Assembly: GCA_038741495.1 (NCBI GenBank)
Contig: JAVYKX010000002.1
Span: 198,541 to 262,540 of the forward strand
Reading direction: 5' to 3'
DNA: 64,000 nt
Source of the DNA: Thermofilum sp.
GTDB lineage: Archaea; Thermoproteota; Thermoprotei; Thermofilales; Thermofilaceae
Shown piece by piece: positions 4,262 through 62,298 of this stretch; position 1 is the first letter of the stretch, and the number at the start of each line of letters is the position of its first letter. The position numbers and the translations under genes were made by a program. The notes beneath the pieces are model-generated. The model saw only the letters and a list, made by a program, of their open reading frames with translations, made no database searches and was not told the DNA's origin.

Positions 4262-4367
4262 GCCGGGGTCGCCTAGCCTGGTCTAGGGCGCCGGACTCAT
4301 AATCCGGTTATCCCGGGTTCGAAGCCCGGTGCTCGGCACGCGGGCGAGAGTCCCGGCCCCGGCACCA
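4262..4367 (+). tRNA. Elongator tRNA-Met(CAU) with a T-loop intron
   Basis: The acceptor GCCGGGG pairs with CCCCGGC (4357-4363), followed by A and an encoded CCA. The anticodon stem CCGGA/TCCGG carries the loop CTCATAA, so the anticodon is CAU. The CCGGA stem and G1-C72 pair suit an elongator rather than an initiator tRNA; Ile2(CAU) is a less likely alternative. A 27-nt intron (4324-4350) splits the T loop between positions 59 and 60. Its BHB is clear: helix TTCG/CGAG, 3-nt bulges AAG and AGT, and an inner CCCG/CGGG hairpin. Splicing restores T loop TTCGAAT on stem CCGGG/CCCGG. Confidence 0.93.
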
Positions 4368-7840: not shown

Positions 7841-7949
7841 GGGCCGGTAGCTCAGCTAGGTAGAGCGGCGGTCGAGGCGGCCGAGGCTCTTAGGTCCAAG
7901 TGATGGGGAAACCCGTAGGTCCCGGGTTCGAATCCCGGCCGGCCCGCCA
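7841..7949 (+). tRNA. tRNA-Lys(CUU) with two introns
   Basis: The acceptor GGGCCGG pairs with CCGGCCC, discriminator G, encoded CCA. The T arm is CCGGG-TTCGAAT-CCCGG. Intron 1 (7872-7885, 14 nt) splits the anticodon stem between positions 30 and 31 and has a perfect BHB: helix CGGC/GCCG with bulges GGT and AGG. Intron 2 (7893-7910, 18 nt) is the canonical 37/38 intron with helix CTCT/GGGG and bulges TAG and AAA. Splicing gives stem GCGGG/CCCGT and loop CTCTTAA, anticodon CUU. Confidence 0.93.
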
Positions 7950-8915: not shown

Positions 8916-8924
8916 GCTTAAATC
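8916..8924 (+). promoter_or_regulatory. TATA box of permuted initiator tRNA-Met
   Basis: GCTTAAATC lies about 25 bases before 8946, where the leader strand of the permuted tRNA precursor (GACCGCACC) begins. Confidence 0.5.
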
Positions 8925-8965
8925 AGCAGAAGGAGCTATGTACTTGACCGCACCGGGCCTGAGAA

Positions 8966-9058
8966 TCCACCCCCCGCTACCAGCTAAAGCCACCCCGAAG
9001 CGGGGTGGGGAAGCCAGGTATCCCGCCGGGCTCATAACCCGGAGGTCGGTGGTTCAAA
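8966..9058 (+). tRNA. Circularly permuted initiator tRNA-Met(CAU)
   Basis: The 3' part comes first: T60, T-stem strand CCACC, acceptor strand CCCCGCT, A and CCA (8966-8982). After a 16-nt spacer (8983-8998) comes the 5' part (8999-9058): AGCGGGG, D arm, anticodon stem CCGGG/CCCGG with three consecutive G-C pairs and loop CTCATAA, then GGTGG and TTCAAA. The A1-T72 pair and G-C-rich anticodon stem mark an initiator. Leader and trailer (8946-8959 and 9060-9073) form a 14-bp helix. The join is a BHB with helix TGAG/TTCA and bulges AAT and AAA, cut at position 59/60. Splicing and circle opening yield a normal tRNA. Confidence 0.95.
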
Positions 9059-9165
9059 AGGCCTGGTGCGGTCTTCCCACCCAGATCATCGAGAGGACTT
9101 CGTGCAAAGGCGCTTTACGCCGTTTCTCGCCGGAAGGAGGCGAGTTTCAAATTCCGAATGCTTGT

Positions 9166-9265
9166 TGGCGCCGGGGCCGGGATTTGAACCCGGGCGCCCA
9201 GAGATGGGCAGTGGCTTTCAGTTCTCTCTCCAGGCCACCGCCTTGGTCCGCTCGGCCACCCCGGC
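9166..9265 (-). tRNA. tRNA-Ser, probably anticodon GGA, with one intron
   Basis: This is a type II tRNA with a long variable arm. The acceptor GCCGGGG pairs with CCCCGGC, discriminator G, encoded CCA. The anticodon stem GTGGC/GCCAC encloses 18 nt, 11 more than a normal loop. Removing 11 nt at 37/38 gives loop CTGGAGA (GGA). Removing a different 11 nt at 33/34 would give CTTGAAA (UGA). Neither position has a good BHB, so the anticodon is a best guess. The exons and 37 bp of upstream DNA are shared with the second tRNA-Ser at 12.2 kb. Confidence 0.85.
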
Positions 9266-52594: not shown

Positions 52595-52700
52595 TGGTGC
52601 CGGGGCCGGGATTTGAACCCGGGACCCTCCGGTCTCCACCTTTCTGGTGGCTTCAGCCGGATGCTCTCTAGCGCTTGCTCTCCCGCTGAGCTACCCCGGC
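52595..52700 (-). tRNA. tRNA-Phe(GAA) with D-loop and anticodon-loop introns
   Basis: The acceptor GCCGGGG pairs with CCCCGGC, A and an encoded CCA. Intron 1 (52668-52681, 14 nt) lies in the D loop near 20/21 with helix AGCG/CGCT and bulges GGA and AGA; the flanking repeat GAGAGCA hides the boundary on simple inspection. Intron 2 (about 52634-52650, 17 nt) interrupts the anticodon loop at or near 37/38 and is dominated by a CCACC/GGTGG hairpin. Splicing gives stem TCCGG/CCGGA and loop CTGAAGA, anticodon GAA. Confidence 0.92.
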
Positions 52701-61614: not shown

Positions 61615-62298
61615 GTGATCGCGACGACTTTCAGCGGGTCTAAGGGGGGTACTGGGAAGACTACGCTCGCCGTCTGCCTGAGCGTGGTAGTGGGGGGTGT
61701 AGCGCCGACGTTACTCGTCGATGCGAGCTCTGAGGGGGGCGCGACGGCTTACCTGGTAGGGGACGTTCCTCCCCCGTACCTAAGGGATGATCCTTCACGT
61801 AGCCTGAGGCGGGTTGAAAGCGGTTCGCTGAGGTTGACGATTGCGGTGAATCGGGGGCCTCTTGCCGATCTGCAGGTGGTTGCGGATCACGTGCGAGGCT
61901 GGTCTAGAGCCTACAGCGTTGTAGTTGTAGATCTGCCCGCCCTCACAGATGTAGATGCTGTGGAGAGGTACATGCCGCTGCTGAAGCTCGCTGACGCTGT
62001 CCTAGTAGTCACCGAACCTAGTCCTGCAGCGATGGAAGCGGCCCTCTACAAGTTCAGCGGGAAGAGTGTAGTTGTCGTTCTAAACCAGCCAAGGCCTTAC
62101 CCGCTGGCTGTGGTAAATCAGTACATCTCTATGATGAGAGTTTTCTGCCGTAACGCGGGCTGCGAGTACGTTGTCGTTCCCTACGAGCCCGCGATGAGCA
62201 GGCTGAGCCCCTCCACGCTGCGCGTAATTAACTACACGAGCGAGGAATTCGATGCAGCAATCATGCGGCTTGCCAGGCTTCTGCTGCGTCAGGTATAA
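61615..62298 (+). CDS. parA: ParA/MinD-family ATPase
   Basis: The 227-residue protein has the deviant Walker A KGGTGKTT at residues 10-17 (with the signature lysine), LLVDASSEGG for the A' motif, VVVVDLPAL for Walker B, and VVLNQPRP. It is short relative to chromosomal ParA and lacks an N-terminal DNA-binding domain. GTG start. It follows parB by 99 bases that include the inverted repeat. Confidence 0.9.
   Translation: MIATTFSGSKGGTGKTTLAVCLSVVVGGVAPTLLVDASSEGGATAYLVGDVPPPYLRDDPSRSLRRVESGSLRLTIAVNRGPLADLQVVADHVRGWSRAYSVVVVDLPALTDVDAVERYMPLLKLADAVLVVTEPSPAAMEAALYKFSGKSVVVVLNQPRPYPLAVVNQYISMMRVFCRNAGCEYVVVPYEPAMSRLSPSTLRVINYTSEEFDAAIMRLARLLLRQV

What the first reader, a model, noticed from the sequence alone, without database searches (positions are those of the whole stretch)
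8946..9074. Circularly permuted initiator tRNA-Met gene
The 3' part with CCA precedes the 5' part, separated by 16 bases. Leader and trailer form a 14-bp helix that leads into a BHB whose two 3-nt bulges join positions 59 and 60. The order, pairing and initiator features (A1-U72, three G-C pairs in the anticodon stem) are seen directly. Permuted tRNA-iMet is known from Thermofilum pendens, so the class is described; this copy anchors the taxonomy and is a clear example.
Basis: partly seen in the sequence, partly recalled or inferred. Interest (0 to 1): 0.85.

Follow-up and report, generated by a model that had tools for sequence, protein, structure and literature searches.

The report
Permuted initiator tRNA gene in Thermofilum
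This heat-loving archaeon encodes its only detectable start-codon tRNA with the two halves in swapped order, so the RNA must be cut and rejoined to work; the arrangement was already known from a close relative, and here it is shown to be widespread and conserved across the family.

Summary
At 8966-8982 lies the 3' half of an initiator tRNA-Met (T60 to CCA), then a 16-nt spacer, then the 5' half (8999-9058). Leader and trailer form a 14-bp helix running into a canonical 3-4-3 bulge-helix-bulge whose cuts join positions 59 and 60. The joined sequence is a perfect tRNA-Met; the unjoined one is called as no tRNA. No other initiator tRNA was found in the genome (1.6 Mb, 96% complete). The same gene occurs in 12 of 27 genomes of the order, including all 7 of the genus and T. 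pendens at its published coordinates. Leader and trailer differ between species, yet 9-12 of 12 positions pair, against 6.2 of 12 when partners are swapped; a TATA-like box sits 46-53 nt upstream of the 3' half in all. The class was described by Chan et al. 2011, so this is a new member of a known kind. New detail: this copy lacks the T. pendens anticodon intron; a sister genus has a colinear initiator gene in the same neighbourhood; and this genome's elongator tRNA-Met has an intron with the same bulge-helix-bulge at 59/60, consistent with origin from an intron-bearing gene.

The parts
8919..8925 (+). TATA-like promoter element (around CTTAAAT), 48 nt upstream of the 3' half; implies transcription start at or near the leader helix
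   Evidence: TTAAA/TTATA-type element 46-53 nt upstream of T60 in all 12 related loci
8946..8965 (+). leader; 8946-8959 outer helix strand, 8960-8963 central 4-bp helix strand, 8964-8965 part of the 3-nt bulge
8966..8982 (+). 3' half of tRNA-iMet, positions 60-76 including encoded CCA
8983..8998 (+). 16-nt intervening sequence between the mature 3' end and mature 5' end
   Evidence: 2-23 nt in relatives
8999..9058 (+). 5' half of tRNA-iMet, positions 1-59, anticodon CAT, no anticodon intron
   Evidence: ARAGORN calls the joined 77-mer tRNA-Met(cat)
9059..9073 (+). trailer; 9059 third nucleotide of the bulge, 9060-9073 outer helix strand
4262..4367 (+). colinear elongator tRNA-Met with a 27-nt intron (4324-4350) at position 59/60 and the same 3-4-3 BHB geometry (comparison, not part of the permuted gene)
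   Evidence: ARAGORN and Rfam report a truncated 77-nt gene instead

Best explanation
This is the cell's initiator tRNA-Met gene, circularly permuted at position 59/60. One transcript from the promoter upstream of the 3' half carries leader, 3' half, spacer, 5' half and trailer (inferred). Leader and trailer pair and, with the T-stem, form a 3-4-3 bulge-helix-bulge (shown in sequence and by covariation). The tRNA splicing endonuclease cuts both bulges and a tRNA ligase (RtcB type) joins A59 to U60, giving a circle in which the acceptor stem is closed by the 16-nt spacer (inferred). RNase P and tRNase Z then remove the spacer to give a mature tRNA with encoded CCA (inferred; the circle has been shown only for algal permuted tRNAs).
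For: Complete tRNA parts with an exact junction; ARAGORN finds no tRNA in the genomic order but a perfect tRNA-Met(cat) once joined; only one initiator anticodon arm in the genome and no second 5' half among the tRNA-like hits; no other 3' half nearby; conserved permuted order in 12 of 27 genomes of the order incl. T. pendens at the coordinates published for its permuted gene; leader-trailer covariation: 9-12 of 12 positions paired in every sequence, with compensatory pair types at nearly every position, against a mean of 6.2 of 12 with swapped partners; 3-4-3 geometry with at least 3 of the 4 central pairs in 11 of 12; spacers of only 2 nt in some relatives leave no room for a second promoter; TATA-like element at a near-constant distance upstream of the 3' half.
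Against: No RNA data. The genome is a 4-contig, 96%-complete assembly, so a colinear copy in missing sequence is not excluded. The naked RNA's predicted minimum-energy fold is not the cloverleaf: the spacer CCACCCCGA pairs with the 5' half (-76.0 against -62.7 kcal/mol at 37 C), though the leader-trailer helix and T-stem are retained. The splicing enzymes were not searched for in this genome.
Confidence: 0.96

Rival explanations
1. The halves are expressed as two separate transcripts and joined in trans (a split tRNA whose halves happen to lie side by side).
For: Adjacent split halves are known in Aeropyrum pernix tRNA-Asp (PMC3218864); the BHB would be identical in trans.
Against: Spacers as short as 2 nt in relatives leave no space for a promoter before the 5' half; the only conserved TATA-like element lies upstream of the 3' half.
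Confidence: 0.03
2. A pseudogene or scrambled remnant of an initiator gene; the working gene is elsewhere.
For: The assembly is 96% complete, so absence is not absolute.
Against: Exact complementary halves, conserved BHB and covarying leader-trailer in many species; no other initiator gene found.
Confidence: 0.01
3. Ordinary colinear gene with a 59/60 intron, misread because of a flanking partial copy.
For: The elongator tRNA-Met of the same genome has such an intron.
Against: No 3' half downstream of the 5' half and no 5' half upstream of the 3' half: the only other loose match to the 3' half in the window is at 61685 on the other strand, in sequence with no tRNA features.
Confidence: 0.005

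Closest known systems
Permuted tRNA-iMet(CAU) of Thermofilum pendens (Chan, Cozen and Lowe 2011, PMC3218864)
   Same: Same isotype, same order, junction 59/60, encoded CCA, BHB between leader and trailer, single copy; found here as G022:C2:539235-539271
   Different: T. pendens has a 7-nt spacer and a 37/38 intron in the 5' half; this copy has a 16-nt spacer and no intron; leader and trailer sequences differ while still pairing; T. pendens has 3 of 4 central BHB pairs, this copy 4 of 4
Permuted tRNA-Tyr(GUA) of T. pendens (same paper)
   Same: Same junction and architecture
   Different: Different isotype; its counterpart was not found in this genome with the patterns used
Type IV (59/60) permuted tRNAs of the red alga Cyanidioschyzon merolae (reviewed in PMC3978253)
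   Same: Junction at 59/60; model of splicing to a circle and opening of the acceptor end
   Different: Eukaryotic, no encoded CCA, unrelated sequence; circle shown there, not in archaea

Membership tests
Archaeal circularly permuted tRNA genes (T. pendens type, 59/60) | 3' half encoded upstream of 5' half on the same strand | tested here: met
Archaeal circularly permuted tRNA genes (T. pendens type, 59/60) | Joined halves make a full tRNA; no colinear copy in the genome | tested here: met
   (genome 96% complete)
Archaeal circularly permuted tRNA genes (T. pendens type, 59/60) | BHB at the junction 59/60 formed by leader and trailer | tested here: met
   3-4-3 geometry, covariation across species
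Archaeal circularly permuted tRNA genes (T. pendens type, 59/60) | Single promoter upstream of the 3' half | tested here: met
   by sequence only
Archaeal circularly permuted tRNA genes (T. pendens type, 59/60) | Circular RNA intermediate and mature tRNA | not testable with these tools
   needs RNA; PMC3978253 states it is unclear in archaea
Initiator tRNA-Met | CAU anticodon, A1-U72, three consecutive G-C pairs at the anticodon-loop end of the stem | tested here: met
Trans-spliced (split) tRNA | Halves from separate transcripts with their own promoters | tested here: not met
   no promoter-sized space before the 5' half in relatives; 16 nt here

The most novel reading that the evidence does not exclude
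Permutation of the initiator tRNA is an old trait of the order Thermofilales that has switched back to a colinear gene in at least one lineage (the sister genus, in the same chromosomal neighbourhood), so permuted and colinear states interconvert in place, possibly by reinsertion of the spliced or circular RNA as DNA.
Probability: 0.3. Interest if true: 0.6.

Novelty: new member of a known kind. Interest (0 to 1): 0.35.

Why it matters
An essential single-copy tRNA depends wholly on splicing-mediated rearrangement across a family of archaea. The comparative set (permuted genes in at least four genera, a colinear one in the same neighbourhood in a sister genus, and a 59/60 intron with the same BHB in another tRNA of this genome) makes the origin and possible reversal of tRNA permutation directly testable, which two genes from one species could not.

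Tried and rejected
ARAGORN and Rfam gathering scans do not see the gene, as expected for a permuted gene. Viral contigs hold no copy. BLAST of the 23S gene against plasmids gave no identification. A seeming shared neighbour in the distant permuted genome G010 is a paralogous class I aminoacyl-tRNA synthetase (36% identity), so synteny there was rejected. The 61685 match to the 3' half is not part of a tRNA. The initiator gene was not located in nine genomes of the order (draft assemblies).

Full report
What is there. The window holds, on the + strand, a leader (8946-8965), the 3' half of a tRNA (8966-8982, TCCACC CCCCGCT ACCA), 16 nt of spacer (8983-8998), the 5' half (8999-9058) and a trailer (9059-9073). 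Joining 5' half to 3' half gives a 77-nt sequence that ARAGORN reads as a perfect tRNA-Met(cat), while the genomic order gives no tRNA (searches also miss it). A1-U72 and the three G-C pairs next to the anticodon loop mark it as the initiator.

Junction. Leader 8946-8959 pairs with trailer 9060-9073 over 14 bp; the 4-bp central helix is 8960-8963 with 9053-9056 (A57-U, C56-G, U55-A, U54-G); the two bulges are AA^U60 and A58A59^A. This is the 3-4-3 bulge-helix-bulge of archaeal tRNA splicing, with cuts that join 59 to 60. The fold is far more stable than shuffles (z -6.45). The minimum-energy fold of the naked RNA keeps the leader-trailer helix and T-stem but pairs the spacer with the 5' half in place of the acceptor stem; this comes from this species' spacer and is a mild caveat.

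Genome. The window lies in a 1.62-Mb, 4-contig genome of the same genus as a genome with a 1,781,889-base contig whose permuted initiator gene lies at 539235-539271, the place that Chan et al. 2011 give for T. pendens. The initiator anticodon-arm motif occurs once in the genome, no second 5' half occurs in the sequences fetched for the genome's tRNA-like hits, and the other two CAU tRNAs are the elongator at 4262 and a tRNA-Ile2-like gene. So this is the only detectable initiator gene, within 96% completeness.

Relatives. A pattern scan of 85,000 species found the arrangement in six other records, five labelled Thermofilum, Thermofilaceae or Thermofilales and one an archaeon without a name that belongs to the order. 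Among 27 genomes of the order, 12 have it: all seven of the genus, four genomes in two other genera of the family, and one genome (G010) of another family; none was found in the other 54 genomes of the class. A thirteenth (G017) has the 3' half at a contig edge preceded by a leader-like sequence rather than a 5' half, as expected for a permuted gene. Leader and trailer sequences differ between species while pairing is kept: 9-12 of 12 positions in each, compensatory pair types at nearly every position, against 6.2 of 12 on average when leaders and trailers of different species are combined. One genome (G019) has a shifted junction geometry. Spacers range from 2 to 23 nt. A TATA-like element lies 46-53 nt upstream of the 3' half in all 12 loci tested. 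Together these point to one transcript with a functional leader-trailer helix.

Differences from T. pendens. That gene has a 7-nt spacer and an intron at 37/38; this one has a 16-nt spacer and no intron. Introns of different length and place occur in G012, G018, G019 and G020.

Evolution. Five genomes have a colinear initiator gene: two of a sister genus in the same family (G015, G016) and three of other families (G002, G004, G008). None has a 59/60 intron. In G015 the colinear gene lies near the same tryptophanyl-tRNA synthetase (72% identical) and, in G015 and G016, near the PEP synthase that neighbours the permuted gene in Thermofilum, so the two forms are likely the same locus. This bears on the published suggestion that the T. 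pendens locus was laterally acquired. On an RpoB tree G015 is nested between permuted lineages (100/99 support), and the label needs at least two changes: by my count an old permutation with two losses, or three gains. The data do not decide; ten genomes on that tree are unscored and the root is by midpoint. The elongator tRNA-Met of this genome (4262-4367) has a 27-nt intron at 59/60 whose 3' end (GGGCGAGAG^T) has the same layout as the permuted gene's leader (GCCTGAGAA^T). This is what the tandem-duplication model (reviewed in PMC3978253) predicts: leader and trailer are the two arms of a former intron.

Permuted tRNA-Tyr, known from T. pendens, also occurs in five genomes of genera g3 and g7, and is colinear in G005, G006, G010 and G014. 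It was not found in this genome with the patterns used.

Verdict. The observation and the reading are right. The class is known; this is a new, clean member, and the comparative set is the useful addition. Transcription, circle formation and ligation remain inferred.

Noticed in passing
window 4262-4367 (+): Elongator tRNA-Met carries a 27-nt BHB intron (4324-4350) at position 59/60; standard tools report a truncated gene with a mispaired acceptor stem.
   Followed up: yes
L074 / L191 (G016, contig 163): Just downstream of the colinear initiator gene lies a partial copy of its 5' half (GGGGGAGTCAGGTATCCCGCGGGGCTCAT), as might be left by a duplication or an integrated element's attachment site.
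   Followed up: no
L110-L115 (G012, G017-G020, G022): Permuted tRNA-Tyr genes with spacers of about 1-24 nt and a large anticodon intron, extending the T. pendens case to two more genera.
   Followed up: partly
G000 and genus members G021, G023-G026: No tRNA-Tyr gene was found with patterns that find it in relatives; it may be permuted with an altered acceptor or D-arm, or more finely interrupted.
   Followed up: partly
window 8983-8998: The spacer contains CCACCCC, a near copy of part of the 3' half, and can pair with the start of the 5' half in place of the acceptor stem.
   Followed up: partly
window 7841-7946, 52598-52700, 9166-9262 and many loci L002-L031: Many tRNA genes of this genome carry introns, often at non-canonical positions.
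   Followed up: no
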